From the NCBI RefSeq assembly GCF_007845675.1, contig NZ_VOBR01000007.1:62001-126000 (forward strand): a stretch of DNA of 64,000 nt, written 5' to 3'. The translations under genes were made by a program, and so were the position numbers. This document shows, piece after piece, positions 10,352 through 62,185 of this stretch (the first letter of the stretch is position 1; every line of letters starts with the position of its first letter). This stretch comes from Lentzea tibetensis. Its GTDB lineage: Bacteria > Actinomycetota > Actinomycetes > Mycobacteriales > Pseudonocardiaceae. Under the pieces are notes generated by a model. That model was not told where the DNA came from. It ran no database searches and worked only from the letters and a program-made list of their open reading frames with translations.

Positions 10352-11654
<1,303 letters not shown>

Positions 11655-42453: not shown

Positions 42454-42471
42454 GATCAGAAGGGGGCTGTG

Positions 42472-44618: not shown

Positions 44619-45049
44619 CCACCGACGAGGCGATGCTGGCTCAGGTCAGGCAGATGTGGGACGAGCTGGACCCGGTGCCTGACGAGCTCGCCGACCACGC
44701 CTGTTTCGGGCTTGCCCTGGCCACCGTCGAAGCGGAGGTCGCACGGGTGCTGCGACATGCCCATCCGGTCGGCGCGCGCGGCGACGAGCGGTCCCGCGTG
44801 ATCACGTTCGACAGCACCACGCTGACGGTCATGATCAGCATCGCCGACAACGCGGACGGCACACTGCGGCTCGACGGCTGGATCACCCCGGCCGCGAGCC
44901 ACACCGTCGAGTTGCGGGCCGCGACCGGTGTGCGGACGGGGTCGTCCGACCGAAATGGACGGTTCGCGTTCGACAACGTGGCCGCGCAACTGACCCAGCT
45001 GGCCGTGCGGACCAACGGCACGGTCATCACGCCGGCGATCGCGTTGTGA
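44612..45049 (+). CDS. Small helical plus carboxypeptidase-regulatory-like beta-sandwich protein
   Basis: 145 aa. Either ATG 44612 or GTG 44615 (overlapping the sigma stop as GTGA) follows GGGAGG. The first ~60 residues are helical (AMLAQVRQMWDELDPVPDEL), the rest a beta-sandwich: LRLDGWITPAASHTVELRAA then GSSDRNGRFAFDNV, the carboxypeptidase regulatory-like pattern. Position after a sigma gene suggests an anti-sigma or adaptor role; the fold alone does not prove this. Confidence 0.7.
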   Translation: MVTTDEAMLAQVRQMWDELDPVPDELADHACFGLALATVEAEVARVLRHAHPVGARGDERSRVITFDSTTLTVMISIADNADGTLRLDGWITPAASHTVELRAATGVRTGSSDRNGRFAFDNVAAQLTQLAVRTNGTVITPAIAL

Positions 45050-45050
45050 C

Positions 45051-47567
45051 ATGACCGCGGTCGAGGAAAGGGCACGGGCACTGCACGCCCGAGGGCTCGC
45101 CGCGACCGGCCGCGGCCGGTCCGCGCAGGGGTGCCGGCTGTTCCGTGCGGCACTGGCGTTGCTGGACTGGCCCGAGACGACGCAACGGGACAGACACGCC
45201 GTCGTCACGCGGATACTGATCAGCCTGGCTGCGGCCGAGGTGCACCTCGGCCGCAGCGAGGTGGGGTTCGCGCTGCTCGACGACGCGGAAGCCCTTGCGG
45301 AACAGGATGATCGCGGCATCCTGTTGCTGCAGCGAGGTCTGCTCTGCGTCCTCGTGGGCCGGATGGACGAGGCGTTGCACCACCTCAACGAGGGAATATC
45401 GGCGCTGGAGGGGCATGCGGAGGGCTACGACCTCGCCAGTGCCCTGCTGAACCGCGCCATGCTGCACAGCCTGGCGGGGCGGGCCCGGCTCGCCAGGGCG
45501 GATCTGCTGCGGTGCGGGGACATCGCGCGTCGGGCAGGGCTCGCGCTGCTGGTGGCGAAGTCCGAGCTCAACCGGGGCTACTGCGAGATGCTGATGGGTG
45601 ACATCCCGGCCGCGTTGCGCGCGTTCGACCTGGCGAAGCCGGAGTTCACGAGGCGCGCGACGGACCTGCTGCCCGTGCTCGCGGTGGACCGGGCGAGGAC
45701 GCTGATGCAGGCCGGGCTCGCCGACGAGGCCGCCGCCGAGCTGGACGAGGCGATCCGCCTGCTGGGCCACGCACGTCCCACCTACGAGCGGGCGGAAGCC
45801 GCGCTCACCCGCGCGCAGGTGGCACTGGTGCAGGGTGACCATCCGACGGCGAGGCTGTGGGCGCGCCGGGCGGAACGGTGTTTCCTGCGTCGTGGCGACC
45901 GGAGCTGGGCCGCGGTCGCCACGCTCACCCGGCTGCGGGCGGACTTCCGGACGGGACGGCGGTTGTCCGCGATCGCGTCCGAGGCGGCCGCGCTGGCGCT
46001 GCGGCTGCGCGGCCTCGGTCTGCCGAACGACGCCGAGGCAGCCGCACTGCTGGCGGCCCGCGTCTGCGTGCGGCGCGGCGACCTGCGCGAGGCCCGCAGG
46101 CACATGTCGCACCGCCGCAGCACGTCACCGGTGCTGGAGACGAAGCTGTTGCGCAGGCTGACGGCGGCCGAACTGCATGCCGCCGAGGGCGACACCGGGC
46201 GGGTGTACCGCGACGCGCGGGCCGGGCTGGACCTGCTGCACGACCACCGGGCGCGCCTCGCGAGTCTCGATCTGCGCACCGGAACCGCCGCACTGGGCGC
46301 CGAGCTCGCGGCCGTCGGACTGGGCACCGCTGTGCGCCACAGCAGGGTGCCGGTGATCTTCGCGTGGTCGGAGCGCTCGAGGGCGCAGGCGTTCCTGGTG
46401 CCCCCGGTGCGCCCACCCACCGACGTCGACACGTCCGACGCCGTGGCCGAACTGCGTCAGCAGGCCATGGTGGTGCGGGCCGCGGAACTCTCCGGTCGGC
46501 CCGACCCCGGCGCGTCGCGGCGGTGTGCCGAGCTGGAGCACGTGATCCGGGCACGCGGCTGGCAGGCCGATGGCGACGGTGAACGCACGGGCGTGGCCGG
46601 TTTCCACGACGTCGCAGCGGAACTCGGCCGCACCGGTGAGGTGATGGTGACCTTCCTGCCGGTGGTCGGCCAGGTGCTCGCCGTGGTCATCGCCGATGGC
46701 AGGGGACGGGTGGTCCGGTTCGGGGATCTCGCCGCGGTGTCCGAGGCGATCGCGAGACTGCGCAGCGACCTGGACGCGATCTGCGGTCGCACGCTGCCAC
46801 TGGCACTGGCCGAAGTGATCACCGCCTCGATCCGGCATCAGCTCGCGGTGCTCGACGAGCACCTGTTGCGACCGCTGGGGGACATGCTCGTCGATCGGGA
46901 TCTGGTCGTGGTGCCGACCGGGCCGTTGTCCGGCATTCCGTGGGGCCTGCTGCCACCACTGCGCGGGCGGCCCGTCACGGTAGCGGCATCGGCCTCGGCG
47001 TGGCTGCAGGGCCGCAGAGCGGTGTCGGCTCCGATGATCTCCGAGCCGCTGCTGGTCGCGGGCCCGCACCTCAGGTTCGCGGCGGCCGAGATCAGCAAGA
47101 TCGCCGGAATGCTGCCCGCCAGCACCGTGCTCACCGGCGCCGACGCGTCGGTCGACGCGACGCTGGCAGCCATGGACAACCGGCGGATCGTGCACGTTGC
47201 CGCGCATGGACATCACGAGCCGGGCAACTTCCTCTTCTCCAGACTGGACCTCGCCGACGGGCCGCTGATGGCGTACGACATCAGCAGGCTGCCCACGGCC
47301 CCGCAACACGTCGTGCTGTCGTCCTGCGACACCGGCCGGACGGTGATGCGGGTCGGCGACGAGATGCTCGGCTTCGCCGCGGCTTTCCTGTACAGCGGAA
47401 CGAAAACGGTCGTGGCGGGTGTCGCACGGGTGCCGGACGACACGGTCACCGGTGTCATGGCGGCCTACCACGACCTGTTGCTGCGCGGTGCCCGGCCGTC
47501 GCGGGCACTCGCCGAGGCGGCGGTCGCCGAGCCGTTGATCCCGCTCGTGTGCTTCGGCAGCTGCTGA
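45051..47567 (+). CDS. TPR-CHAT protease (caspase-like)
   Basis: 838 aa. Residues 1-~400 are TPR-like helical repeats; the C-terminal third is a CHAT domain with both catalytic residues: His in IVHVAAHGHHEPGN near 716 and Cys in VVLSSCDTGRT near 759. CHAT enzymes are clan CD cysteine proteases, including the TPR-CHAT partner in some CRISPR systems and in programmed-death systems. It begins 1 bp after the upstream stop. With an S8 protease and a sigma factor in the same operon, a proteolytic signalling relay is plausible. Confidence 0.9.
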   Translation: MTAVEERARALHARGLAATGRGRSAQGCRLFRAALALLDWPETTQRDRHAVVTRILISLAAAEVHLGRSEVGFALLDDAEALAEQDDRGILLLQRGLLCVLVGRMDEALHHLNEGISALEGHAEGYDLASALLNRAMLHSLAGRARLARADLLRCGDIARRAGLALLVAKSELNRGYCEMLMGDIPAALRAFDLAKPEFTRRATDLLPVLAVDRARTLMQAGLADEAAAELDEAIRLLGHARPTYERAEAALTRAQVALVQGDHPTARLWARRAERCFLRRGDRSWAAVATLTRLRADFRTGRRLSAIASEAAALALRLRGLGLPNDAEAAALLAARVCVRRGDLREARRHMSHRRSTSPVLETKLLRRLTAAELHAAEGDTGRVYRDARAGLDLLHDHRARLASLDLRTGTAALGAELAAVGLGTAVRHSRVPVIFAWSERSRAQAFLVPPVRPPTDVDTSDAVAELRQQAMVVRAAELSGRPDPGASRRCAELEHVIRARGWQADGDGERTGVAGFHDVAAELGRTGEVMVTFLPVVGQVLAVVIADGRGRVVRFGDLAAVSEAIARLRSDLDAICGRTLPLALAEVITASIRHQLAVLDEHLLRPLGDMLVDRDLVVVPTGPLSGIPWGLLPPLRGRPVTVAASASAWLQGRRAVSAPMISEPLLVAGPHLRFAAAEISKIAGMLPASTVLTGADASVDATLAAMDNRRIVHVAAHGHHEPGNFLFSRLDLADGPLMAYDISRLPTAPQHVVLSSCDTGRTVMRVGDEMLGFAAAFLYSGTKTVVAGVARVPDDTVTGVMAAYHDLLLRGARPSRALAEAAVAEPLIPLVCFGSC

Positions 47568-47626: not shown

Positions 47627-48400
47627 ATGGCGACGGGATGGCGTTTCGGCGTGCTGGGACCACTGGAGGTGTGTTACGACGGCAGACTGGTACTGATCGG
47701 AGCGGCGAAGCAACGGGTGCTGCTGGCCTCGTTGCTGATCGCGGCGAACCAGGTCGTCCCGACCGGGACGCTCGTGGCACGGCTGTGGGGTGAGTCGCCG
47801 CCACGAGGACACCGCAACACGCTGCAGAACCACGTGCTGCGGCTGCGCAGGGTGCTGGGTGAGGCCGGTTCCCGCGTCCCGGTGCACACCCGCCCCGGCG
47901 GGTACGTGGTGCAGGTGGGACACGACGAACTGGACCTGATCACGTTCCAGCGCATGCTGTCGGCCGCGCGCGTGTCGGCACGGGCAGGCGACCTGGCACG
48001 CATGTCCTGCCTGCTGCACGACGCACTGGGCCTGTGGCGAGGCCCCGCGCTGGCCGACGTTCCCTCGGACGCGCTGCAGCGGGAGGTCGTGCCGGCATTG
48101 GTCGAGAACCGGCTGCGCGCCGCCGAACTGCGCATCGGCGCCGACATCTCACTGGGCGATCACCACGAGGTTCTCGCTGAACTGCACGAGCTCACGTGCT
48201 CGAACCCGCTGCGCGAACCGTTGTGGGCACTGCGGATGCTCGCCCTGTACCGCTGCGGACGCCAGGCCGAGGCACTCGCCTGCTATCACGAGGTGCGCGG
48301 CCATCTGGCCGGCCAGCTGGGCATCGATCCCGGTGCGGAACTGAGCCTGCTGCACCAGCGGATGCTGACCGCGGATCCCGGTCTGGTGCTCGCGAAGTGA
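47627..48400 (+). CDS. Small SARP family regulator (winged helix plus BTAD)
   Basis: 257 aa. Winged-helix domain WRFGVLGPLEVCYDGRLVLI through GSRVPVHTRPGGYVVQVG, then the BTAD domain ending QLGIDPGAELSLLHQRML. It lacks the ATPase and TPR parts of the larger SARP. It lies 59 bp after the CHAT gene and 68 bp before a secreted protease gene, which may be its target. Translation seems limited by the hairpin over its ribosome site. Confidence 0.9.
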   Translation: MATGWRFGVLGPLEVCYDGRLVLIGAAKQRVLLASLLIAANQVVPTGTLVARLWGESPPRGHRNTLQNHVLRLRRVLGEAGSRVPVHTRPGGYVVQVGHDELDLITFQRMLSAARVSARAGDLARMSCLLHDALGLWRGPALADVPSDALQREVVPALVENRLRAAELRIGADISLGDHHEVLAELHELTCSNPLREPLWALRMLALYRCGRQAEALACYHEVRGHLAGQLGIDPGAELSLLHQRMLTADPGLVLAK

Positions 48401-51710: not shown

Positions 51711-51745
51711 CGTTCCACCGCAGAAGGAACGGGATGGAACGCCGT
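51711..51745 (+). promoter_or_regulatory. GGAAC direct-repeat operator, site 1
   Basis: GGAAC at 51726 and 51736, one helical turn apart, inside GGAACGGGATGGAACGCCG. CGTTCC (51711-51716) makes an inverted partner to the first. The same arrangement precedes the leftward genes at 58155 and 60074 and the rightward gene at 58316. It lies 71 bp before the start at 51811. Confidence 0.65.
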
Positions 51746-51810
51746 ACGAGGTGAGACGGGGAAACTACCGACCCGATCTCGGATCCATCGTCGTGGGAAG
51801 GGCGGCTGTG

Positions 51811-51978
51811 ATGCGTTGCGTTTTCATCGGGACGGGCGGGGTCCTGGGTCGGATCGACAGCGAGACGCGGTGCGCGTTCTGGGCCGAGGAGCCGGTCGAT
51901 CACGGCGCACCCCAACGCGGCGCACTGTTCTTGGTCAGCGGCCAACTCTCGAGCGAGCTACCCGTGGAGTCACGATGA
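51811..51978 (+). pseudogene. Internally deleted copy of the 59424-60074 protein
   Basis: 55 residues. The first 32 (RCVF...GRID-ETRCAFWAEEPVDHG) match the start of the 216-aa protein at 59424-60074, and the last part (APQRGALFLVSGQLSS) matches its C-terminus; about 165 residues between are missing without a frameshift. The upstream region, including the GGCGGCTGTGATG start and the GGAAC operator, is also shared. The stop overlaps the next gene (ATGA). It may still make a short peptide. Confidence 0.75.
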
Positions 51979-52235
51979 ACGACAGACCCGAGCCAGCAAC
52001 CAACTCCCGCAAATCGCTCGTCGCGAATCAACCGCGGAGCTTGCGTGTCGCCGCGCTGCTGGTGGCCGCCGCGCCGGTAGCTGTCGCGCTCGTCGCCCTC
52101 GCCTCGCCGATGGCCGCCCCGATCCGGATCGGCTCAGCACCTGCCGACACAACGCTCGTCCAACCCACGTGCGACGTCGCGATCCCTTCTGGTGCGCTCA
52201 ACCCGGTGAAGTGGCCGGAATGCGGCGGCGACTGA
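51975..52235 (+). CDS. Single-TM peptide with C...SGALN...C tail (copy 1)
   Basis: 86 aa, GGAG ribosome site. A basic N-terminal part is followed by one membrane helix (VAALLVAAAPVAVALVALAS) and an outer tail TCDVAIPSGALNPVKWPECG-GD. The paralogue at 59183-59413 keeps Cys, SGALN, K, P, Cys and the final GD. The two cysteines could form a loop outside the membrane. Function unknown. Second gene of the duplicated cassette. Confidence 0.7.
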   Translation: MNDRPEPATNSRKSLVANQPRSLRVAALLVAAAPVAVALVALASPMAAPIRIGSAPADTTLVQPTCDVAIPSGALNPVKWPECGGD

Positions 52236-52274
52236 GCGATCGTCCGCGCGCCACACGAATCCCGAGGAGTCACG

Positions 52275-52430
52275 ATGGACAAGGAGCCCAAGGCGTCCGC
52301 ACCGCCGGTTGCCGCGAAGCGATCGCCTCGTGTGCGGGCCGCCGCGCTGTTCAACAGTTCCGTCCTGCTGGCCACCACCGCGCTGATCATTGCGATCGAG
52401 CCCAAAGCTCCGCCCTTCAAAGGTGACTAG
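52275..52430 (+). CDS. EPKxPPFKGD-family single-TM peptide (copy 1)
   Basis: 51 aa, ATG with GAGGAG upstream. Pro/Ala/Lys-rich start, basic stretch (RSPRVR), a membrane helix LFNSSVLLATTALIIAI and the tail EPKAPPFKGD. Three paralogues lie at 57281, 57985 and 58983 on the other strand. By the positive-inside rule the tail would face outward. Unknown family; the strict tail suggests recognition or cleavage by a partner. Confidence 0.75.
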   Translation: MDKEPKASAPPVAAKRSPRVRAAALFNSSVLLATTALIIAIEPKAPPFKGD

Positions 52431-52493
52431 CGGACCGCGCAAGGCGTTTTCAGTGACCGTGCTGCATTACCAGTGAGGTGGGGGAACATCGCC

Positions 52494-54173
52494 ATGTCGA
52501 CCGCATCCGGGGTTCTGAGATCCATCGCGACCAGCGCCTTGGCTGTCGTCGCGGTCCTGTCTGCTGCTGTCGGGTCGTCGGTGAGCGCGGCCGTCGTCGA
52601 GTCGCCGCAGGTGATCCGCTTTCACGGCGGTGGTGACGACCGTGCCGGCGCCATCGCTCTCGACGGTGCGGGCAACATGTACCTCGGGGGTGCGGTGGGC
52701 ACGCCCAACACCGGCATCACCTTCGCGGTGGTCAAGCTGAACGCGCGCGGTGAACTGATCTGGCGCACCACGTACAGCGGTGCGCGCGGCGGGACCCTCG
52801 GCGCCGTGAGCGCGCTGGCCGTCGACGCGGCCGGTAACGTCTTCGCGGGTGGCCACATCAGCGATGACCGCAACGTGGACTCGTTGGTGCTCAAGCTGGG
52901 GCCCGACGGCTCGGAGCGCTGGGCGCAGCGCTACGACGGACCAGGCGGAGGCTATGACCAGGTCATCGGGCTTGCGGTCGACCAATCCGGTGCCGTGTAC
53001 GCCACCGGGAACTCATATGGCACCGGCTTCGACTGGGTGACGCAGCGGTTCGGGTCCGACGGAACGTTGCAGTGGACGCGGCGGCACAGCGGCCCGGGAT
53101 CCGCCGACGACGTGGTCGGCGACATGATGCTCGGGCCCAACGGCGACCTCGTTGTCGCTGGGGTCACGAGGAACACCCCCGACGCGCTGACCAACGACAT
53201 CGAGATCGTGAGCTACCGCCCGTCGGGCGAGATCAACTGGCGACAGCAGTGGACCGACACGCCCATCAGCCACGAGCTCGTCGAGGACATGGACGTCGAC
53301 GCCGCCGGGGGGATCACGGTGACCGGCTCGACGGCCCGGAATCCCAGCCCCGAGTTCGGCGTACCGTTGCCGATCACCTTGCGGTACAACGCTTCAGGCT
53401 CGCTCCAGCAGACGATCCGTGCCGGTGGTAACGCCGTCGCCGTCGACTCGAACGGCGGCGCCGCCTACCTCGTTGGGTCCTTCATGGACAAACCTCAGCT
53501 GTCGCAGACAACGAAGTACGACGCGGCCGGCAACCTGGTGTGGGTCACGCCACTCGCGTTGAACACCAACGAATTTCTGGTTGTCACCGGCATCGTGGTG
53601 GACGCGCAGGGCGTCGCCACCGTCGCAGGCACGGTTCACAACCCTCGCATGCCCGCCGTTGACTACCTCACCATCCGGTACTCCTCCGACGGAAGGGAGT
53701 TGTGGCGCCACCGGTTCAACGGCCTGGGCAACGGTGACGACCGCGTGGCCGGGCTCGCGGTCGACAGCGCGAACGGGGTCCTGGTCACCGGGACCTCGTG
53801 GGGCGACTACTCCTCCTCGGGCGATACCGACAACGACATCCTGACGTTGAGGTTCCCCGCAGGCGTCACCCCGAGCCCGGACCTGCCGCCGGTCGCGCCG
53901 AGCCACCTCGTCGCCACATCCGCGTCCAGGAGCCAGATCCGCTTGAACTGGCACGACAATTCGGATGTCGAGACCGGACTCCGGATCGAGCGCTGCCGGG
54001 GTTCGAGATGCACCGACTTCGCCCAGATCGCCGTGCTCGGCTCTGACGTGACGACGTTCCTCGACAGCGGTCTGGCCCGGAACACCTCGTACACCTATCG
54101 GGTGCAAGCAACCAACACAGCCGGAAGCTCGCTGTTCTCCAACCCGTTCAGCGCCAAGACTCGCGTCAGCTGA
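52494..54173 (+). CDS. Secreted beta-propeller protein (SBBP-like repeats) with fibronectin III domain
   Basis: 559 aa from ATG 52494. Signal peptide to ~33. Six or so repeats of the pattern AIALDGAGNMYLGG, ALAVDAAGNVFAGG, GLAVDQSGAVYATG form a propeller, and residues ~470-559 a fibronectin type III domain (SHLVATSASRSQIRLNWHDN). These repeats occur in extracellular binding proteins. It ends 5 bp before the lanthipeptide synthetase start, so the two are probably co-transcribed. Confidence 0.85.
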   Translation: MSTASGVLRSIATSALAVVAVLSAAVGSSVSAAVVESPQVIRFHGGGDDRAGAIALDGAGNMYLGGAVGTPNTGITFAVVKLNARGELIWRTTYSGARGGTLGAVSALAVDAAGNVFAGGHISDDRNVDSLVLKLGPDGSERWAQRYDGPGGGYDQVIGLAVDQSGAVYATGNSYGTGFDWVTQRFGSDGTLQWTRRHSGPGSADDVVGDMMLGPNGDLVVAGVTRNTPDALTNDIEIVSYRPSGEINWRQQWTDTPISHELVEDMDVDAAGGITVTGSTARNPSPEFGVPLPITLRYNASGSLQQTIRAGGNAVAVDSNGGAAYLVGSFMDKPQLSQTTKYDAAGNLVWVTPLALNTNEFLVVTGIVVDAQGVATVAGTVHNPRMPAVDYLTIRYSSDGRELWRHRFNGLGNGDDRVAGLAVDSANGVLVTGTSWGDYSSSGDTDNDILTLRFPAGVTPSPDLPPVAPSHLVATSASRSQIRLNWHDNSDVETGLRIERCRGSRCTDFAQIAVLGSDVTTFLDSGLARNTSYTYRVQATNTAGSSLFSNPFSAKTRVS

Positions 54174-54178
54174 CCGGC

Positions 54179-56893
54179 ATGGCTGGACATGACGACTCAC
54201 GGCTGCTGATCGACATCGTCACGGCTGTACTCGCGCGAGCGGGTGCTGACTGGACGATTGACACCGGCGCGTTCTGGTGCTCGCTGAGCCCTCCTGACGG
54301 GCGCATGCCTGATCAGGGTTGGAAGTTGCACGTGTCGGCAACCCAGCTGTCCGCGCCGGTGGTGCTTTCGCGCGCCGCGGACGTGCTGATCGCGGAGGGC
54401 TGTGCGTTCAAGTTCGCACGTGGGCTGGACGAGGTGGCGGCACTTCTGTCCAGTCGGTGTGATCGGGGCAGCGGTGGGAAGTTCATCACCGCGTATCCGT
54501 TGGACGACGAGACGTTCCGTCGGGTGGCGGCGAGGTTGGACCTGGCGACTGATGGTTTGCCGGGGCCGGCGATTCTGTCCGACCGCCGGCTGCGCCCGAA
54601 CAGCCTTGTGCACTACCGCTACGGCGTTTTCGGCGCCGAGGCGGTGCTCACCAACGACGGCGGTCTCGAGCCCGTGCTGACGGGGCCGGACGGGGAGAAG
54701 ATCGTTGACGAAAGGCCGGCGTGGTTCAGCCCACCGGAGTGGGCGGTGGCGCCGCTGCCCGAGCCGTCCGGAGCTGACGGAGGCCGCGTACCTGAGTCGG
54801 TGCTCATCGCCGACCGGTTCGTCGTCCGTGAGGCCGTCCGGCATTCCTACCGGGGCGGTGTCTACCGGGCGACCGATCGGGACACCGGCGACGAGGTCAT
54901 CGTCAAGCAGGCTCGCCCGCACGTGATGGGTCTGTTGACCGGCATGGACGCGCGTGATGTGTTGCGTCACGAGGCAGAGATGCTCGACCTGCTCAGCCCA
55001 CTCGGCCTGGCGCCGCGCAAGATCGCCCTGGTCCGTCAGCAGGACAACCTGTTCCTCGCCGAGGAGTTGGTGCCAGGGGTCACGTTGCGCCGGTGGGTTG
55101 CTGAGCGCTGCATCGATGTGTGGCGAGGTGCGGGCGCTCCGGTGGCCGAGGCGGTCGACAAGGCGGGCCGGCTGGTGGGGATCGTGACCGCGGTCCACCG
55201 GCAGGATCTCGTGTTGCGTGATTTCACGCCCAACAACGTGATGGTCACCCCGGATGAGCGCCTGCGGCTGATCGACCCGGAGCTCATCGTCGCGACCGGC
55301 TCCCGTGCCTCGGCGGCACACACGGCGGCTTACGGCGCGCCGGAGCAGGTCTCCGCGCCGAGGTTCGGCCCGGTGCCGTCGCAGCGGGCCGACCTGTACA
55401 GCCTCGGCGCCACCATCATGTTCCTGGTCTCCGGTGTCGACCCGCTGCTGCCCGCGGACGAGCGCCCGCTGCAGGCCCGCATCGCCGAGTTCGTGACTGC
55501 GCTGGGGACATCCATGCCGGCGGTGCGTGCGTTTGCCCCGCTGATCCTTGGCCTTCTGCGAGATGCCCCGGAAGAGCGGTGGACAACGGCGCAGGCACAC
55601 GCTTTCCTCGCCGACGAGCGCCACGCCGAGGCGGTGGCCCCCGCGCGGCTGCGGGCCGCGACGGTCGACCGCGTGTTGGCCGACGGGCTCAACCACGCGC
55701 TGCGGACCATGAGCCCCACCAACCCGCGGCTGTGGCCGGTCGACGAGCAGCGTGGCAACACGGACCCCGCCAACGTGCAGCACGGCGTTGCGGGTGTGCT
55801 CGGGGTGCTGACCAGGGCCGCGAGGGTGCTCGGTGATGACCATCTGCGTGAAGGCGTTGCCACCGCGGCTGGTTGGCTCGACCGTCGGCTGTTCGACGTG
55901 CCACGCCTCCTGCCGGGTCTGTACTTCGGCAGAGCCGGTACGGCGTGGGCGATGTACGACGCGGCCCGGCTGCTGGGCGACGACGAGATGGCCGCGCGAG
56001 CCGTCGAGTTGGCGAAGCGGTTGCCGGTGCGGTGGCCCAATCCGGACGTCTGTCACGGCACCGCCGGTGCCGGAATGGCGTACCTGCGCCTCTGGCTGGC
56101 GACCGGTGACTCCGAACTGGAACGCCGTGTCGAGGATGCCGCGGACTGCGTGCTCGACGCGGCACAGGAGCGCGACGGCCACCTGACGTGGCCGATTCCG
56201 GCGACGTTCGACTCGCGGCTGTCCGGGTTGGCGCACTACGGCTTCGCCCATGGAGTGGCAGGCGTCGGAGCCTTCCTGTTGTACTGCGGTGTCAGCACCG
56301 GCCGAGCCGACTGCGTGACAGCCGCCCGCCAGGCGGGCAACACGTTGGCGGCCGCGGCCGACCTCGACCACGGGGCGGCGTGGTGGCCCAGTGGCACGCA
56401 ACGCGACCCGGCCGCCTCACGGATGTGGCATTGGTGCAGCGGATCGTCCGGCGTCGGAACCTTCCTGATCCGGCTGTGGTCGGTCACGGGGGAGCCGCGT
56501 TTCCGCGACCTCGCGGAGGCCGGGGCGGTCGCGATCCGCCGCGCGGGCTGGTACTCCTCGACAGCGGCCTGCCACGGCTTGGCAGGCGACGGGGAGTTCC
56601 TGCTGGACCTGGCCGCCTGCACCGGCGACCACCGCTACCACGAATGGGCCTCAGAACTCGCCGCGATCGCTCACACCCGTCACGCGATTCGCGACGGGCT
56701 CGCGGTCCTGCCGGACGAGTCCGGTGCGGACACCGTCGCCGTCGGCTACAGCACCGGGCTCAGCGGCGTACTCGGGTTCCTGCTCCGGCTGCGCCACGGC
56801 GGCCAGCGGTGGTGGATGCCCGATGAGATCCTTGCCCCAGAAGGGAAATGGCCCGTCTTCGTTGCTCGGACACCTGAGCTGACTGTCCACTGA
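54179..56893 (+). CDS. lanL: Lanthipeptide synthetase, class IV-like (lyase-kinase-LanC cyclase)
   Basis: 904 aa. Residues 1-~210 correspond to the lyase part, ~215-490 to a Ser/Thr kinase-like domain (RGGVYRATDRDTGDEVIVKQ, catalytic LRDFTPNNVMV, metal-binding LIDPELI), ~520-900 to a LanC cyclase. The cyclase keeps the zinc ligands: Cys in WHWCSGSSGV near 752 and Cys-His in ACHGLAGDG near 798, which points to class IV (LanL) rather than class III. The enzyme phosphorylates and eliminates Ser/Thr of a precursor and adds Cys to make lanthionine rings. Two precursor genes follow directly. Confidence 0.9.
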   Translation: MAGHDDSRLLIDIVTAVLARAGADWTIDTGAFWCSLSPPDGRMPDQGWKLHVSATQLSAPVVLSRAADVLIAEGCAFKFARGLDEVAALLSSRCDRGSGGKFITAYPLDDETFRRVAARLDLATDGLPGPAILSDRRLRPNSLVHYRYGVFGAEAVLTNDGGLEPVLTGPDGEKIVDERPAWFSPPEWAVAPLPEPSGADGGRVPESVLIADRFVVREAVRHSYRGGVYRATDRDTGDEVIVKQARPHVMGLLTGMDARDVLRHEAEMLDLLSPLGLAPRKIALVRQQDNLFLAEELVPGVTLRRWVAERCIDVWRGAGAPVAEAVDKAGRLVGIVTAVHRQDLVLRDFTPNNVMVTPDERLRLIDPELIVATGSRASAAHTAAYGAPEQVSAPRFGPVPSQRADLYSLGATIMFLVSGVDPLLPADERPLQARIAEFVTALGTSMPAVRAFAPLILGLLRDAPEERWTTAQAHAFLADERHAEAVAPARLRAATVDRVLADGLNHALRTMSPTNPRLWPVDEQRGNTDPANVQHGVAGVLGVLTRAARVLGDDHLREGVATAAGWLDRRLFDVPRLLPGLYFGRAGTAWAMYDAARLLGDDEMAARAVELAKRLPVRWPNPDVCHGTAGAGMAYLRLWLATGDSELERRVEDAADCVLDAAQERDGHLTWPIPATFDSRLSGLAHYGFAHGVAGVGAFLLYCGVSTGRADCVTAARQAGNTLAAAADLDHGAAWWPSGTQRDPAASRMWHWCSGSSGVGTFLIRLWSVTGEPRFRDLAEAGAVAIRRAGWYSSTAACHGLAGDGEFLLDLAACTGDHRYHEWASELAAIAHTRHAIRDGLAVLPDESGADTVAVGYSTGLSGVLGFLLRLRHGGQRWWMPDEILAPEGKWPVFVARTPELTVH

Positions 56894-56903
56894 GGAGTGT
56901 TTC

Positions 56904-57110
56904 ATGATCGAGACGGATATCAGCACACTGGATCTGCTTCCGGCAGACGCGAACACACCCGTGTTCTCGGGCGTCATCACTTGTCCTACCGGCAGCGGAT
57001 TCCCGGGGTCGGCTGTGGCCGCCGAATCGGGCGCGGGCTGCCCCGTTTCGGAGTACCGAACGACCTTCGTCGCGCGGCCGTGTCCGTGGCACTCGAGTCA
57101 AGGTCGATAG
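56904..57110 (+). CDS. lanA1: Lanthipeptide precursor peptide 1
   Basis: 68 aa, ATG with GAGGAG upstream, 10 bp after the synthetase. The leader carries DISTLDLLPADANTP, the LDLLP-type recognition motif of class III/IV precursors. The core begins near ITCPTGSG and has several Ser/Thr and three Cys (TCP, GCP, PCP), enough for up to three thioether rings. A near-copy of the leader recurs in the next gene. No protease gene dedicated to leader removal is adjacent; the S1 protease upstream is a candidate. Confidence 0.85.
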   Translation: MIETDISTLDLLPADANTPVFSGVITCPTGSGFPGSAVAAESGAGCPVSEYRTTFVARPCPWHSSQGR

Positions 57111-57129
57111 TGAGCAAGGGAGTACGTCA

Positions 57130-57294
57130 ATGATCGAGATCGACATCAGCAAACTGGATCTGTTGCCGGCCGACGCGAACACACCCACGTTCTCGGGCAC
57201 CATCACTTGTCCCATGAGCAGCTTCCTGGGACCGGCAGTGGTCACCGACTCAACCGCCAAATCCTGCGACGTCCCTCGAGTCAGTCACCTCTGA
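57130..57294 (+). CDS. lanA2: Lanthipeptide precursor peptide 2
   Basis: 54 aa, ATG with AAGGGAG seven bases upstream. The first 23 residues differ from precursor 1 at three positions only; the core diverges after ITCP (ITCPMSSFLGPAVVTDSTAK, then SCDVPRVSHL) and holds two Cys. It arose by tandem duplication of the leader with a new core, the usual way to diversify such peptides. Its last codons overlap the end of a leftward peptide gene by 14 bp. Confidence 0.85.
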   Translation: MIEIDISKLDLLPADANTPTFSGTITCPMSSFLGPAVVTDSTAKSCDVPRVSHL

Positions 57295-57445
57295 AGGGGG
57301 GAGACTTGGGCTCGATCGCGGCGACCAACGCCGTGGTGGTCAGCACCGCGGTGGTGTTGAAAAATGCGGCGATCCGCAGGAGGCTTGGCTGCTTGGAGGT
57401 TGCCGGCGGCACGGGCGAATCGGCTGGACGGGGATTCTTGTTCAT
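57281..57445 (-). CDS. EPKxPPFKGD-family single-TM peptide (copy 4)
   Basis: 54 aa from the second of two adjacent ATGs (57445), GGAG seven bases upstream. Opens NKNPRPADSPVPP, then LLRIAAFFNTTAVLTTTALV and the tail EPKSPPFRGD (Lys replaced by Arg). Last gene of the leftward set peptide-protease-peptide; 38 bp separate it from the protease-like gene. Confidence 0.75.
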   Translation of the reverse strand: MNKNPRPADSPVPPATSKQPSLLRIAAFFNTTAVLTTTALVAAIEPKSPPFRGD

Positions 57446-57483
57446 CATTGCTCCGGTGAGTTGGGGTTCCGCAGCGCGGGCGG

Positions 57484-57978
57484 TCAGCTGAAGGCCGAGG
57501 CTTCGACGAGGATGTGGGTGAACGCGGGGTTGAAGCCGTCGGCGGTGGAGTGGCTCTTGAGGAGTGGCTTCAGCGTTCCGAAGACCGGCAGGTCCAAGGT
57601 GCGGGCGAGCATGCGAAGCGTGCGTTGGCCGGCCTCGGTCACCGCGGTCTCGCAGCCGAGCAGCCGCACGGCGGTGATCCGCAGGCGGGGGAGCAGACGG
57701 GCCTCGGCAAGCGCGTGAAAGAACCGCGCGACCGTCGGGTCGAGCATGTTGATCGGTGTGTCGCCGAGGCGGAGCAGGTGGTGCTCGCGGGTCGAATGGC
57801 CGAGCAGGTCGAGCGTCGCGGGCGATCCGACGGTGTTGAGATGACCTTCGAGAACCGTGCGCAGCTCGGCGAGCGAGCCCGCGTGCCGCAGGTTCACGCA
57901 GCGCGCGGCTCGCCCGGCGAAGAATGCCTCGGCGCAGTCAGGCGAGGCGACGTTGAGGCTGGGCACCGGGGTGGACAT
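57484..57978 (-). CDS. Compact caspase-like (clan CD) protein, DUF4347/CHAT-like
   Basis: 164 aa, ATG 57978. It has a His motif LDLLGHSTREHHLLRLGD near residue 60 and a Cys motif ITAVRLLGCETAV near 105, in the order and spacing of the caspase-haemoglobinase fold (H after one strand, C after the next). LLGCETA followed by AGQRTLRMLARTLDLPVFGT resembles DUF4347. It is far smaller than usual CHAT proteins and has no partner domain. It starts 6 bp after one EPKxPPFKGD peptide gene and is followed by another, so these peptides are candidate substrates or regulators. Confidence 0.6.
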   Translation of the reverse strand: MSTPVPSLNVASPDCAEAFFAGRAARCVNLRHAGSLAELRTVLEGHLNTVGSPATLDLLGHSTREHHLLRLGDTPINMLDPTVARFFHALAEARLLPRLRITAVRLLGCETAVTEAGQRTLRMLARTLDLPVFGTLKPLLKSHSTADGFNPAFTHILVEASAFS

Positions 57979-57984
57979 GGTCGG

Positions 57985-58155
57985 CTAGTCGCCCTTGAAG
58001 GGCGGGTTCTTCGGCTCGATCGCGATGATCAGCGCGGTGGTGGCCAGCAACGCGGTGCTGTTGAACAACTCGGCAACGCGCCAACGACGTGACCGCTGAG
58101 CGGCGGCCGGGGGGCCGGACGGTTCGGCGGCTGCCGGTTCGACGTCCTCTTTCAT
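57985..58155 (-). CDS. EPKxPPFKGD-family single-TM peptide (copy 2)
   Basis: 56 aa, ATG with AAGGAG six bases upstream. Basic RSRRWR, membrane helix LFNSTALLATTALIIAI, tail EPKNPPFKGD. Its stop codon overlaps the region that supplies the ribosome site of the caspase-like gene, so the pair is translationally linked. Expression likely starts from the GGAAC-type promoter at 58197-58214. Confidence 0.8.
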   Translation of the reverse strand: MKEDVEPAAAEPSGPPAAAQRSRRWRVAELFNSTALLATTALIIAIEPKNPPFKGD

Positions 58156-58196
58156 CGTGACTCCTTGAGGTTGTGGCCGGTCTCATCCGTACCGGC

Positions 58197-58270
58197 GTTC
58201 CACCTCGTTCCACCGGTGGGCGTGAGGACGTTCCACCGTTGTTGGGTGAGGAGTTGGAACGGGGTGGAAC
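58197..58270. promoter_or_regulatory. Divergent GGAAC direct-repeat operators, sites 2 and 3
   Basis: On the minus strand GGAAC occurs at 58207-58211 and 58197-58201 (10 bp apart), facing the peptide gene at 58155. On the plus strand GGAAC occurs at 58256 and 58266 (10 bp apart), facing the gene at 58316. A lone GTTCC at 58230 lies between. Flanking bases (TGGAACG, then CGCC) match sites 1 and 4. Confidence 0.7.
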
Positions 58271-58315
58271 GCCTTGGTGGCGAAGGTGAATCAGCCACCA
58301 GGTTGGAGGAGTTCC

Positions 58316-58864
58316 TTGAAGATCACTGATCGAGTTCGCGGCTGGCACGTCCGGCTCGCTGTGGTCGCTGCCCTGCTCTGCATCGCCACCAGCATCGGTG
58401 TGGCCACAACGTCTCCCGGCTCGGGCCTCGCCTGCGGCTCCTCGCCGAAATGCGCTGACGGTCCGCCGCCAGCAGGAATCGTGCGAACCAACCCGGAACG
58501 GGATCGCAGCTCACACCTCGCCTGCGGCGGCGACCCGAAATGCGCTGGCGGCCCACCGCCAGCAGGAGTCGCCCGAGCCGTCCCGCAACGGGTTCATGGC
58601 CCGCACCTCGCCTGCGATACGCCGAAATGCTCCGGCGGCCCACCGCCTACGGCAATTTTCGCCTGCAACAGCTCGCCGAAATGCTCCGGCGGTCCGCCGC
58701 CTGCGGTCGCTGTCCTGCTCGGCGTCTCCGCCGGTGTAGGTGCGGCCACGACGCCCGCTGGCTCTCCTGGCGCGGACCTCGCCTGTGGTGCCTCGCCGAA
58801 TTGCGGTCAAGGCCCACCGCCGGTGACTCTCGTCCGAGTTGGCCTCGGGGTCGCTGTTCCGTAG
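58316..58864 (+). CDS. Exported protein with five Cys-PKC-GPPP repeats
   Basis: 182 aa from TTG 58316, which has GGAGGAG six bases upstream. A membrane/signal segment (RLAVVAALLCIATSIGVATT) is followed by five units: ACGSSPKCADGPPP, ACGGDPKCAGGPPP, ACDTPKCSGGPPP, ACNSSPKCSGGPPP and ACGASPNCGQGPPP. Each has two cysteines 4-5 residues apart, Pro-Lys (Asn in the last) before the second, and a triple proline. Linkers vary in length; one contains a second hydrophobic stretch. I know no such family. It could be a repetitive surface protein or a multi-core precursor peptide. Confidence 0.7.
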   Translation: MKITDRVRGWHVRLAVVAALLCIATSIGVATTSPGSGLACGSSPKCADGPPPAGIVRTNPERDRSSHLACGGDPKCAGGPPPAGVARAVPQRVHGPHLACDTPKCSGGPPPTAIFACNSSPKCSGGPPPAVAVLLGVSAGVGAATTPAGSPGADLACGASPNCGQGPPPVTLVRVGLGVAVP

Positions 58865-58882
58865 GAGCCGGTAGTCGCCGGT

Positions 58883-58912
58883 GCTCGGGCCCTGCCCCAA
58901 CAGGGCCCGAGC
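58883..58912. terminator. Bidirectional hairpin terminator
   Basis: A perfect 12-bp stem, GCTCGGGCCCTG (58883-58894) with CAGGGCCCGAGC (58901-58912), loop CCCCAA. It separates the convergent repeat-protein gene (ends 58864) and the leftward peptide gene (ends 58983) and can serve both. Confidence 0.8.
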
Positions 58913-58982
58913 TGACCTTCACCGCAGATGCTTCACAACGCCAAGGGCGCTTGAGACAAGCCGTCGGACTTTCATCTACAAG

Positions 58983-59153
58983 CTAGTCACCTTTGTAAGG
59001 AGGGAGCTTGGGTTCGACGGCGATGACCAGTGCGGTGGTGGCCAGCACCGCGGTGGCGTTCAGCAGCTGAGCGGCCCGGCGATGGCGTGGCAACTTGGCG
59101 GTGACCGACGGCGCGGGTGGGACGGACTCGGCTGGATCGGGATCGTTCTTCAT
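58983..59153 (-). CDS. EPKxPPFKGD-family single-TM peptide (copy 3)
   Basis: 56 aa, ATG 59153 with AAGGAG five bases upstream. Membrane helix LLNATAVLATTALVIAV and tail EPKLPPYKGD. Third gene of the intact cassette, the same place as copy 1 in the duplicated cassette at 51811-52430. Confidence 0.78.
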   Translation of the reverse strand: MKNDPDPAESVPPAPSVTAKLPRHRRAAQLLNATAVLATTALVIAVEPKLPPYKGD

Positions 59154-59182: not shown

Positions 59183-59413
59183 CTAGTCTCCAGCGCAGAC
59201 CGGAACTTTCATGGTGTTGAGCGCTCCGGAGTGGACTGACACGACGCACTCCGTGGGGATGAGCGTTGCGCCGGGGTGTGGCGTGGTCGCTGCGCCGATC
59301 GTGACGGTCAGCGGTGCGGCGAGTGCCAAGGCGGTGGCCACCGGCGCTGCGGCGATCAGTAGCGCGGCGATCCGGTGACGGCGTCGTTCGGTGGGTTCGG
59401 GTTTGCTGTTCAC
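59183..59413 (-). CDS. Single-TM peptide with C...SGALN...C tail (copy 2)
   Basis: 76 aa from GTG 59413, GGAG seven bases upstream. Membrane helix AALLIAAAPVATALALAAPL, tail ECVVSVHSGALNTMKVPVCA-GD. Aligns with the 51975-52235 peptide along its whole length. Sits 10 bp after the large cassette gene. Confidence 0.72.
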   Translation of the reverse strand: MNSKPEPTERRRHRIAALLIAAAPVATALALAAPLTVTIGAATTPHPGATLIPTECVVSVHSGALNTMKVPVCAGD

Positions 59414-59423
59414 CGCGTGCTCC

Positions 59424-60074
59424 TCAGGGTTGTGACGGGAGGTGGCCGCTGATCAAGAACAGCGCGCCACGTTTGGGGGCGGAGCCGACGCCGATCGTGG
59501 TGAGGCTGTCGGGGCCGGCGTCGCATTGCTCCGGCGACGCCAAGTCGATCCACATGGGAACCGGGCGCACGTCTGGCTGATCCGACCTGCCCGGCGGGTA
59601 GACCGCCACCCGCGCCAGCGAACCCTGTTCGTCGAGAATCTCCGCGCAGTGCCCGGCGTAGCGGCTGCCGGCCCGCGGATCATCACCGTCGGGCCAGTAG
59701 ACCGTCGTCATGCATTCGTAGGACTGGCCGCTCATCCCCGCAGGCGGACACGCCGGGCGCAGCTCTGCCGGGAGTGTGGCCAGGAAACCGCGCTCCAGGT
59801 ACACCGCGCCGCCCAGCTGCAACTCCGGCCACCGCGGTCCCAGCGTCGTCCCGGACAGCGCGCCGTTGGGGCCGGTGAAGCAGTCGTCGACCTGCACCTC
59901 GTCCCAGCCGATCTCCTTCGCCACCGCGGCAGACGGCGTCCGTCCGAGGTCCACCTCGATCAGCAGGGCCGGGTCGAAGCCGTGATCAACAGGTTCCTCC
60001 GCCCAGAACGCGCACCGCGTCTCACCATCGATCCGGCCCAAGAACCCCGGCGTCCCGACGAACACACACCGCAT
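59424..60074 (-). CDS. Unknown protein, 216 aa, first gene of the cassette
   Basis: ATG 60074 (a GTG just before it is also possible); ribosome site GGAAAAGG upstream. Opens RCVFVGTPGFLGRIDGETRC, then AFWAEEPVDHG, contains seven further cysteines scattered through the chain and ends APKRGALFLISGHLPS. No membrane segment or known domain. An internally deleted paralogue is at 51811. Both have the same promoter element and are followed by the same two peptide types. Confidence 0.7.
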   Translation of the reverse strand: MRCVFVGTPGFLGRIDGETRCAFWAEEPVDHGFDPALLIEVDLGRTPSAAVAKEIGWDEVQVDDCFTGPNGALSGTTLGPRWPELQLGGAVYLERGFLATLPAELRPACPPAGMSGQSYECMTTVYWPDGDDPRAGSRYAGHCAEILDEQGSLARVAVYPPGRSDQPDVRPVPMWIDLASPEQCDAGPDSLTTIGVGSAPKRGALFLISGHLPSQP

Positions 60075-60126
60075 CACAGCCGCCTTTTCCTCACCACGAT
60101 GAGCCGATCCGGCTGACCCCTACGGC

Positions 60127-60144
60127 GTTCCACCCCGTTCCACC
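60127..60144 (-). promoter_or_regulatory. GGAAC direct-repeat operator, site 4
   Basis: Minus strand GGTGGAACGGGGTGGAAC with the two GGAAC words 10 bp apart, 53 bp before the start at 60074. The 75-bp gap after the upstream gene contains little else, so this is probably the promoter of the intact cassette. Confidence 0.7.
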
Positions 60145-60149
60145 GGGAG

Positions 60150-62033
60150 TCAGGTAGGTCGGTACCAGCAGCGAATTCCGGTGTGGACCCCGGCGCGCAG
60201 GTGCGCACCGATCGTGGGGTCGGCCCGCTCGATGTGGGTGAGGGCACGCCGGATCGCCCGGCCCACCGCCAGTCGCGCGCGTTCGGGGTTGTCCGGAAAA
60301 GCGCGGGCTCGGCCGCCCAGACCTGAACCCGCAGCCAGCTCGGCGAGCACCCAGTCGCGTTCCAGCTGTACCTGGTCGTCGCCGCTGCCGTCCGGGTCCG
60401 CCTGGTCGAGCTCGGTGAGCCGCTGCCGGTAGCGCTGGACCGCGGCGCGGTCGAGCACCGGCTGGGCGGCCGCGCTGCCGGCCACCCTGGCCAGCGCGTC
60501 GAGGCCGACCGCCAGGTCCAGGGCGGGGATCTCGACCTCCGGGTTCGCTGTCAACACAGCCAGGTGGAGCAGGCCGACACTCTGGTCGACGAGGACGGCC
60601 CGGCCTCCCAGTTGGATCCGCCACCGGCGGCCGTGCCGGGTGCAGGTGGCCCTGCCGCTGGGCGACCGCGGTGACGCGGTACCGAGTGTCGACGCCAGCT
60701 CGGTCGCCAGGGCGCGCTGCTCCTTCGCCGCGGCCTCGTCATCGGGTTGCCCCCGGCGCTCCAATGCCTCAGCAAACCGTTGCCGGGCAACCAGCAGCGC
60801 GGGCCAGTGGCCCAACGCGAGGTCGCGGTGCACGGCCTCGCGCAGATGAGCCACCGCTCGCTCCGTCTCGCCCGTGGTCAACGAGGCGACGCCGAGCGCG
60901 TGGTGGACCGAACCGAAGCAGACGACTGCGGGACCCGCCACCACCGGCAGGTCGGCGAACGGGGCCAACAGCTCGTAGGCCGCGGCGGACGCCTTCGCGT
61001 CGCCGAGCAGACGTGCCGCCTCGACGATGCCGTACATGGTGACCAGCCAGTTGCCCGACCGCGGCAGGTCGGCCAGCGCACGACCGCGCAGCGCGGCCAG
61101 CAGCCGCTCGGCGGTCCGGTGATCTCCGGCTGTCGCCGCCGCGACGGCCAGCGCGGCGAAGAACGAGTTGTCCACCACGCTCAGCGTCGGTGAGTTGACC
61201 AGCTCGGTGAGCATCGGCAGCAACTCGCCGAGCCGGCCTTGGTACCAGCGGATCGCAACGATCTGCGCGGCGAACCAGGCCGGCGCATCGACATGGCCCG
61301 CACTGGTGCCCTGCTCGAGGCAGTCCCGCGCGAGCTGCTCGGCTTCCTCCAACCGACCGGCGCGAACAGCCAGCATCACCTCGATGGCCTCGACCACAAC
61401 GCTGATCGCCCGATGCTCGTCCTCAGCCAACAAGCCGCGCAGTTCACCCAGCCGCCGCTCCGCGTGCGGATCGGCATCCAGAAACCGGTCGACCACCTGC
61501 CAGAGCAGACCCATCAACAGATCCGTGCGACGCGCACCCTGTGCCGCGTCACCGACCAACTCATCAGCCAGCGCCCGACGCAGCACACCGTGGTCGGGCC
61601 CGCGCAGACACTGGTGGGCCAGGCTCAACGCCTCCGCGCGCGCCACCGGGTCCGACGATGCTCGGGCCTCGTCGAGCACGGCCAGCGTCGCGGTGTGCGC
61701 GCCGGCGCGGTAGTCGGCCTCGGCGGCCAACCTGATCCGGACTCGCAGCGCCACAGCGGATTTCGGATCGATCAACCGCAATGATCGCCGCAGCCGCGCG
61801 CACAGCGAACCCGACCCGGCGGCCGTGCGGTGCTCGTCCACCCACAAACCGCCCAACCCCAACGCGGCCTCCGCCATCACCAGCGCATCACCGGTCTGCT
61901 CGCCCGCGCCGTACGCAGCGTCGAACCACCGCCGCCCGGCCAGCAGATCACCGTCGGCGTGCAGCGCCCGGATCCCCGCCGCGAGAAACGACTCAGCATC
62001 CTCGACAACCGCGACAATCGCCCCGAACGTCAC
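60150..62033 (-). CDS. TPR-repeat protein with actinomycete-type C-terminal domain, possible regulator
   Basis: 627 aa from GTG 62033, chosen because GAGGAG lies eight bases upstream; a GTG at 62042 is possible. Residues ~10-450 are helical repeats (paired helices rich in Ala/Leu). The C-terminal ~150 residues begin WRIQLGGRAVLVDQSVGLLH and end RAIRRALTHIERADPTIGAH, LRAGVHTGIRCWYRP. That ending is widespread at the C-terminus of actinomycete signalling and regulator proteins, as I recall it. It lies directly upstream of the cassette, in the same direction, and is a candidate regulator of the GGAAC sites. Confidence 0.65.
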   Translation of the reverse strand: MTFGAIVAVVEDAESFLAAGIRALHADGDLLAGRRWFDAAYGAGEQTGDALVMAEAALGLGGLWVDEHRTAAGSGSLCARLRRSLRLIDPKSAVALRVRIRLAAEADYRAGAHTATLAVLDEARASSDPVARAEALSLAHQCLRGPDHGVLRRALADELVGDAAQGARRTDLLMGLLWQVVDRFLDADPHAERRLGELRGLLAEDEHRAISVVVEAIEVMLAVRAGRLEEAEQLARDCLEQGTSAGHVDAPAWFAAQIVAIRWYQGRLGELLPMLTELVNSPTLSVVDNSFFAALAVAAATAGDHRTAERLLAALRGRALADLPRSGNWLVTMYGIVEAARLLGDAKASAAAYELLAPFADLPVVAGPAVVCFGSVHHALGVASLTTGETERAVAHLREAVHRDLALGHWPALLVARQRFAEALERRGQPDDEAAAKEQRALATELASTLGTASPRSPSGRATCTRHGRRWRIQLGGRAVLVDQSVGLLHLAVLTANPEVEIPALDLAVGLDALARVAGSAAAQPVLDRAAVQRYRQRLTELDQADPDGSGDDQVQLERDWVLAELAAGSGLGGRARAFPDNPERARLAVGRAIRRALTHIERADPTIGAHLRAGVHTGIRCWYRPT

Positions 62034-62185
62034 CTGAACCACTCCTCACCCAACCCCGCTCGCGCGGCTCAGCCGCCCGCGACGAGGGTGGCAACAAGGC
62101 CTGCAACCGAGCTGGAACGGGGCTGGCACGGCGGTGGCACGGGTCTCGGCATCGGTTCCAGGTCCGAGGACCGACAGGGCGCGAA

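What the first reader, a model, noticed from the sequence alone, without database searches (positions are those of the whole stretch)
52275..59153. Family of four short membrane peptides with a fixed EPKxPPFKGD tail
Four genes (52275-52430, 57281-57445, 57985-58155, 58983-59153) encode 51-56 aa peptides with a Pro-rich start, a basic patch, one membrane helix (L(L/F)N.T..LATTALIIAIEPK-like) and a C-terminal tail EPKxPP(F/Y)(K/R)GD. All have strong ribosome sites and lie in three transcription units around a lanthipeptide locus and a caspase-like gene. Conserved tails on otherwise varied peptides suggest recognition by a partner, modification, or release of a C-terminal signal.
Basis: partly seen in the sequence, partly recalled or inferred. 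Interest (0 to 1): 0.85.

Follow-up and report, generated by a model that had tools for sequence, protein, structure and literature searches.

The report
Orphan membrane peptide family sharing one switch
One bacterial genome carries four related short membrane-type peptides with an almost fixed tail, each in a gene group that begins with the same DNA signal found before genes for exported, partly sugar-binding-type proteins; what the peptides do is unknown and no relatives were found elsewhere.

Summary
The four peptide genes are real: one on the + strand, three on the - strand, all ending EPKxPP(F/Y)(K/R)GD. dN/dS is 0.17-0.55 in the six pairs, and the tail is the best-conserved part. They match no family model and no credible relative turned up in 391 family genomes, 364 class genomes, two scans of the 84,980-species collection, plasmids, phages or viral contigs. 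A second peptide pair (pepB) also ends in GD.

It occurs 8 times in the genome (up to 1 mismatch; reversed control 0): 4 here, 3 before lectin-like or FG-GAP proteins, 1 inside a gene. In the genus it marks FG-GAP and DUF6289 genes (8 of 8 sites) and tracks close homologues of a TPR protein (window 60150-62042). Its form is that of a SARP operator. The first run continues into a class IV lanthipeptide synthetase.

Best reading: exported peptide precursors in an inducible extracellular regulon, tail displayed or released outside. Regulation, export and release are inferred. The 'caspase-like' neighbour is unproven (no profile hit, model pLDDT 41).

The parts
52275..52430 (+). pepA1, 51 aa, tail IEPKAPPFKGD
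57281..57448 (-). pepA2, 55 aa, tail IEPKSPPFRGD; 3' end overlaps lanA2 by 14 bases
57985..58155 (-). pepA3, 56 aa, tail IEPKNPPFKGD; first gene of its run, 6 bases before the caspase-like gene
58983..59153 (-). pepA4, 56 aa, tail VEPKLPPYKGD
51975..52235 (+). pepB1, 86 aa, longer sibling peptide with two Cys and C-terminal GGD
59183..59413 (-). pepB2, 76 aa, paralogue of pepB1 (52% identical), C-terminal AGD
59424..60077 (-). 217 aa protein of unknown family (MRCVF protein), first gene of the pepB2-pepA4 run
51808..51978 (+). short copy of the MRCVF protein (56 codons and stop): both ends alike, middle missing; first gene of the pepB1-pepA1 run
57484..57978 (-). 164 aa caspase-like candidate (LLGHS ... 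LLGCETA by eye), between pepA3 and pepA2
58316..58864 (+). secreted-looking protein with five repeats like CGSSPKCAGGPPPA, TTG start
52473..54173 (+). SBBP beta-propeller repeats plus fibronectin type III domain
54179..56893 (+). class IV lanthionine synthetase LanL
56904..57110 (+). candidate lanthipeptide precursor 1
   Evidence: 93 nt 84% identical to precursor 2; no family model hit
57130..57294 (+). candidate lanthipeptide precursor 2
   Evidence: no family model hit
51725..51743 (+). operator-like element with one mismatch, before the first run
58194..58212 (-). operator-like element before pepA3
58255..58273 (+). operator-like element before the repeat protein
60124..60142 (-). operator-like element before the MRCVF-pepB2-pepA4 run
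60150..62042 (-). TPR protein (630 aa) whose close homologues track the element in the genus; candidate regulator

Best explanation
The four pepA genes make short exported peptide precursors: a variable basic N-terminus stays inside, a weakly hydrophobic segment works as signal sequence or membrane anchor, and the near-fixed tail (I/V)EPKxPP(F/Y)(K/R)GD faces outside, anchored or cut free after an invariant alanine (A|IEPK). Their gene runs are switched on together through TGGAACG direct repeats (SARP-type operator), in step with secreted lectin-like and FG-GAP proteins and a class IV lanthipeptide, as part of an inducible extracellular or envelope programme. Shown: genes, conservation, the shared element, its genome-wide and genus-wide placement. 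Inferred: that the element is an operator, its binding by the TPR protein or a SARP, co-transcription, export, orientation, release, any function outside the cell.
For: Four paralogues, six dN/dS values 0.17-0.55, tail most conserved, net charge before the helix +2 to +5 against -1 after it. Element found 8 times in the 9.36 Mb genome with up to 1 mismatch, reversed control 0: 4 here, 3 on contig C17 before a fascin-like protein (below Pfam cut-off), an FG-GAP protein and a pair of ricin-B lectins, 1 inside a coding frame. In the genus 7 of 25 genomes, the own included, have the exact element; its 8 sites outside the own genome lie before 6 FG-GAP and 2 DUF6289 genes, all 8 products above their Pfam cut-off and secreted-looking by eye. 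The 7 genomes all lie among the 8 with a TPR homologue of at least 52% identity (hypergeometric 1.7e-5). Two or three heptamers in 10- or 11-bp units are the described form of SARP operators (PMC5930380, passages). Outside the genus, G316 has repeats before a 76% identical MRCVF homologue and, divergently, before a 59 aa one-helix peptide.
Against: No expression, binding or export data. Hydropathy is borderline (19-residue maximum 1.57-2.01), and Ile or Val at -3 is not an ideal signal peptidase site (by eye). The hypergeometric number ignores relatedness, and its identity cut was chosen after seeing the gap: 7 more of the 25 genomes have TPR homologues of 38-42% and no exact element. G251 has the closest TPR homologue (60%) but no exact element, only a GGCAC variant seen by eye. 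The TPR protein has no recognised DNA-binding domain. No pepA-like peptide was found beside the TPR gene in the other genus members (tblastn E 1e-4). The G316 peptide is an analogue at most: same search, no similarity. One of the 8 own-genome sites is inside a gene, and the fascin-like gene's longest frame overlaps its site, so its start was set by eye.
Confidence: 0.5

Rival explanations
1. pepA3 and its neighbours are bitopic membrane partners of the caspase-like protein: a membrane peptide senses damage or invasion and activates a protease, as proposed for the EACC1-caspase two-gene systems.
For: pepA3 ends 6 bases before the caspase-like gene and pepA2 follows it; a 5' one-helix gene with a 3' caspase gene is the layout of System 4 in PMC7159879 (section read).
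Against: Caspase assignment rests on GH...GC by eye; no profile match at E 0.1, one unrelated PDB match at E 0.25, low-confidence model. pepA1 and pepA4 are in runs without it. The conserved tail is predicted outside, away from a cytoplasmic protease. The 164 aa protein leaves no room for a fused effector domain.
Confidence: 0.2
2. pepA peptides are short membrane toxins or regulators of the type I toxin kind, multiplied in one strain, with no exported tail function.
For: Short one-helix peptides, several copies, found in one genome only.
Against: The tail is more conserved than the helix, and the genes share an element with secreted-protein genes; antisense RNA was not sought.
Confidence: 0.15
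3. pepA peptides are substrates of the neighbouring LanL, that is, lanthipeptide precursors.
For: pepA1 lies in the same run of + strand genes as LanL; the only terminator-like site between them is inside the SBBP gene, and such sites are no commoner here than in shuffles.
Against: No Cys in any of the four; the tail has one Ser in one of four copies. The run already has two Cys/Ser/Thr-containing precursor candidates with a shared leader.
Confidence: 0.05
4. Remnants or non-coding repeats: the similarity is DNA duplication and the frames are not used.
For: The first run carries a shortened MRCVF copy; no relatives elsewhere.
Against: dN/dS 0.17-0.55; intact starts and stops in four copies and clear ribosome sites in three.
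Confidence: 0.05

Closest known systems
SARP-type operators (PimR and relatives, PMC5930380)
   Same: Direct heptamer repeats in 10- or 11-bp units, two or three copies, just upstream of the first gene
   Different: Heptamer here is TGGAACG; binding untested; the SARP of the window (47627-48400) has no close homologue that tracks the element, whereas a TPR protein does
EACC1-caspase two-gene conflict system (System 4, PMC7159879)
   Same: 5' one-helix membrane gene followed by a caspase-like candidate
   Different: 51-56 aa peptides with no family match; caspase unproven; no room for a fused effector domain
FxSxx-COOH and RxD peptides of VMAP-linked peptide-processing systems (PMC7159879)
   Same: Small proteins whose conserved part is the C-terminal end
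   Different: Partner metallopeptidase, radical SAM and vWA-MoxR genes not seen among the window proteins scanned with Pfam (not all genes); pepA has a membrane-type helix
Class IV lanthipeptide clusters
   Same: LanL with two candidate precursors in the same run of genes
   Different: pepA lacks Cys and so cannot be a lanthionine substrate
Craspase TPR-CHAT/sigma switch (PMC10028731)
   Same: Window 42.5-47.6 kb holds S8 peptidase, sigma factor and TPR-CHAT genes in a row
   Different: No CRISPR part was looked for or linked; no link to pepA shown

Membership tests
EACC1-caspase two-gene system | 5' gene with an EACC1 domain | tested here: not met
   No Pfam family at E up to 10 for any of the four pepA; whether the library holds an EACC1 model was not checked
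EACC1-caspase two-gene system | 3' gene with a caspase-superfamily peptidase | tested here: inconclusive
   GH...GC by eye; no profile match, PDB best E 0.25 and unrelated; model pLDDT 41.4
EACC1-caspase two-gene system | variable effector domain fused after the caspase domain | tested here: not met
   protein is 164 aa in all
Lanthipeptide precursor (for pepA) | Cys plus Ser/Thr in the core | tested here: not met
   no Cys in the four sequences
Class IV lanthipeptide cluster (for 54179-57294) | LanL above curated cut-off | tested here: met
   NF038150, 1083.5 bits, cut-off 650
SARP-type operator | two or more heptamer direct repeats in 10- or 11-bp units upstream of target genes | tested here: met
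   17 sites lined up (the G237 site L058 is not in that listing); published form from passages
SARP-type operator | binding by a SARP or related regulator | not testable with these tools
   none
VMAP peptide-processing (FxSxx/RxD) | neighbouring zincin metallopeptidase and vWA-MoxR genes | tested here: inconclusive
   none among the window proteins scanned with Pfam; not every window gene was scanned
Exported signal-peptide precursor | cleavage and presence outside the cell | not testable with these tools
   charge and hydropathy only

The most novel reading that the evidence does not exclude
A new extracellular peptide system: four precursors release near-identical 11-mers (I/V)EPKxPP(F/Y)(K/R)GD that, with the Cys-containing pepB peptides also ending in GD, are read by a C-terminal-GD receptor or protease, and are made on demand with lectins and a lanthipeptide through one TGGAACG regulon.
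Probability: 0.2. Interest if true: 0.75.

Novelty: new variant of a known kind. Interest (0 to 1): 0.45.

Why it matters
If right, it gives a testable switch (a TPR protein and/or SARP acting on TGGAACG repeats) that turns on a set of exported peptides, lectin-like proteins and a lanthipeptide together, and a peptide family whose fixed tail invites direct chemical testing as a synthetic 11-mer.

Tried and rejected
Relatives of pepA: the 14 weak profile hits in other family genomes (E 4e-4 to 9e-3) and the 2 in other class genomes (6e-4 and 9e-4) were read. One search read the six minus-strand hits on the wrong strand; one search reads all 16 on the right one: none has the tail before a stop. 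The nearest look-alike, L016, shares TALAIAVEPKLP, but its frame runs on for 82 residues without the tail; several hits have stops inside. The 13 tail-pattern hits in genome contigs and the 2 in viral contigs are chance: none follows a precursor like pepA.

Homology of pepA and pepB: not significant (E 0.27 and 0.30). Caspase-like protein against the window's TPR-CHAT protein: no similarity. Caspase-like protein elsewhere: 1 of 391 family and 1 of 394 class genomes, both times the own genome; plasmids none. MRCVF: plasmids none; of 391 family genomes 4 pass E 0.001, the own, G316, and two weak ones. The G020 match (E 2.4e-5, 30% over 146 residues) lies in frame within an epimerase-plus-glycosyltransferase protein, across the border of its two domains; I took it as unrelated but did not disprove it. 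G013's was not examined.

Window SARP as the regulator: all 15 genomes given have SARP homologues; the best outside the own genome, 57%, is in G236, which lacks the exact element. Only 15 of the 25 genus genomes were given. Fold search was not run because the model was too poor. A model of the TPR protein could not be made.

Papers: the three tail strings give 0 papers. Other searches listed nothing on such peptides or on this mix of genes; of long result lists only the top rows were shown. Only listings were seen, apart from PMC7159879 (outline and two sections), PMC5930380 (passages) and PMC10028731 (abstract and the opening text shown with the outline).

Full report
The four frames encode peptides of 51, 55, 56 and 56 aa; pepA1 is on the + strand, pepA2-4 on the - strand. 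They share 19 invariant columns and the tail (I/V)EPKxPP(F/Y)(K/R)GD. The tail pattern followed by a stop has 4 matches in the window and none in 100 shuffles. Six pairwise comparisons give dN/dS from 0.17 to 0.55, and identity rises from N-terminus (0.39) through helix (0.63) to tail (0.77). Coding under constraint is the simplest reading, though no expression data exist.

The family is confined to this genome as far as I could look. The own genome has the four with E below 1e-26, the next match at 0.155. Of 391 genomes of the family searched with the profile, 15 passed E 0.01; the 14 others lack the tail on inspection. Of 364 genomes of the class, 3 passed E 0.001, the 2 others again without tail. 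In genome contigs 56 stretches matched the pattern drawn from the profile and none was confirmed, and 13 tail-pattern matches were chance. Viral contigs, plasmids and phages gave no relative. Records close to the window may be left out of some collections, only parts of the class were searched, and very diverged relatives could be missed. No Pfam, NCBIfam, PHROG or PADLOC model matches any of the four.

Two longer peptides, pepB1 and pepB2 (52% identical), stand directly before pepA1 and pepA4; they too end in GD, with a Cys pair before it. Of 636 frames of 30 aa or more in the window, 8 end in GD and 6 of these are pepA or pepB. Among 278 frames scored as genes in the window and 16 related loci, one ends in GD, and it is pepA3 in a shortened form (that scan misses the other short genes). 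Before pepB2 lies a 217 aa protein of unknown family (MRCVF); before pepB1 a version of it lacking the middle. Similarity of pepA to pepB was tested and is not significant.

Gene order gives three runs for pepA: 51808 to 57294 on + (short MRCVF, pepB1, pepA1, SBBP/fn3 protein, LanL, two precursor candidates), 58155 to 57281 on - (pepA3, caspase-like, pepA2), and 60077 to 58983 on - (MRCVF, pepB2, pepA4). The terminator scan found 4 sites against 3.6 expected from shuffles: one at the very start of the first run (51802-51819), one inside the SBBP gene (53557-53571), one inside pepA2, one on the strand opposite pepA4. So nothing marks a clear break inside the first run, but co-transcription is not shown.

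Each run, and the divergent repeat-protein gene 58316-58864, begins with a direct repeat TGGAACG-N3-TGGAACG (one base off at 51725). In the whole genome this element (TGGAACNNNNTGGAACGCC) occurs 5 times exactly and 8 times with up to one mismatch; the reversed control gives 0, and about 0.02 exact sites would be expected in uniform random DNA. Beyond the 4 here, two lie back to back on contig C17 before a fascin-like protein (Pfam match below its cut-off; start set by eye, since the longest frame overlaps the site) and an FG-GAP protein, one before a pair of ricin-B lectins, and one inside a coding frame. Some weaker Pfam matches of these repeat and lectin proteins to toxin-domain models are below their cut-offs, and I give them no weight. 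In the genus 7 of 25 genomes, the own included, have the exact element. Its 8 sites outside the own genome precede 6 FG-GAP and 2 DUF6289 genes, all 8 above their Pfam cut-off. At 5 of the 8 the element sits directly between the FG-GAP gene and a homologue of the window's TPR protein 60150-62042.

Homologues of that TPR protein with 52-60% identity, plus the window's own, occur in 8 of 25 genomes; 7 further genomes have only homologues of 38-42% and 10 none at E 1e-50. The 8 include all 7 element-bearing genomes (hypergeometric 1.7e-5, ignoring relatedness, with the cut made after seeing the gap). The eighth, G251, has a TGGCAC version of the repeat by eye. Repeat units of 10 or 11 bp match the published form of SARP operators, where two heptamers are the minimum for binding by PimR (PMC5930380, passages). 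The window's own SARP has no close homologue that follows the element among the 15 genomes tested. So a SARP-type element is likely; whether the TPR protein, a SARP, or both act on it is open.

One genome of another genus of the family, G316, holds a homologue of MRCVF (about 76% identical over 187 residues, with a stop inside, near a contig end) behind four GGAAC repeats, and divergently two repeats before a 59 aa one-helix peptide that overlaps an AMP-ligase-like frame (ligase named by eye). Its peptide shows no similarity to pepA at E 1e-4, but the layout (element, small membrane-type peptide, enzyme) is of the same kind.

Interpretation. Net charges (+2 to +5 before the helix, -1 after) put the tail outside; the hydrophobic segment is weak (19-residue hydropathy 1.57-2.01), so it could be a signal sequence as well as an anchor. 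An invariant Ala with Ile or Val at -3 precedes (I/V)EPK in pepA1, pepA3 and pepA4, and Ala with Val at -3 precedes it in pepA2: a possible signal peptidase site by eye. Together with the secreted company of the element, I favour an exported peptide precursor at 0.5, with release of the tail the least certain step. The rival that pepA works with the caspase-like protein rests on pepA3 and pepA2 flanking it and on the resemblance to System 4 of PMC7159879; it is weakened by the absence of any profile match and by a model of pLDDT 41.

Value. The peptides are a real orphan family in what looks like a coherent regulon, which makes them testable. Without relatives, expression data or a partner, and with the caspase link unproven, I score interest 0.45.

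Noticed in passing
window 42469-47567 (+): S8 peptidase, sigma factor (Sigma70 region 2 match), a small protein and a TPR-CHAT protein in a row, then a SARP at 47627: resembles in parts the TPR-CHAT/sigma switch of Craspase. In G240 a CHAT homologue (47-66% identical) ends about 8 kb from the FG-GAP/TPR pair.
   Followed up: partly
window 58316-58864 (+): Five repeats of a Cys-xxx-PKC-xGGPPP kind in a secreted-looking protein behind the same element; looks like a multi-copy disulfide or core peptide.
   Followed up: no
window 51808-51978 (+): Shortened copy of the MRCVF protein, keeping both ends and losing the middle.
   Followed up: no
L103 about 11500-11620 (G251): Repeat variant TGGCAC in place of TGGAAC beside the closest TPR homologue: possible co-change of operator and regulator, by eye.
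   Followed up: no
window 62113-62150 (+): Degenerate repeats TGGAAC/TGGCAC upstream of the TPR gene itself, possible autoregulation.
   Followed up: no
L045 10175-11928 (G316): One-helix 59 aa peptide whose stop overlaps the start of an AMP-ligase-like frame, behind two GGAAC repeats.
   Followed up: partly
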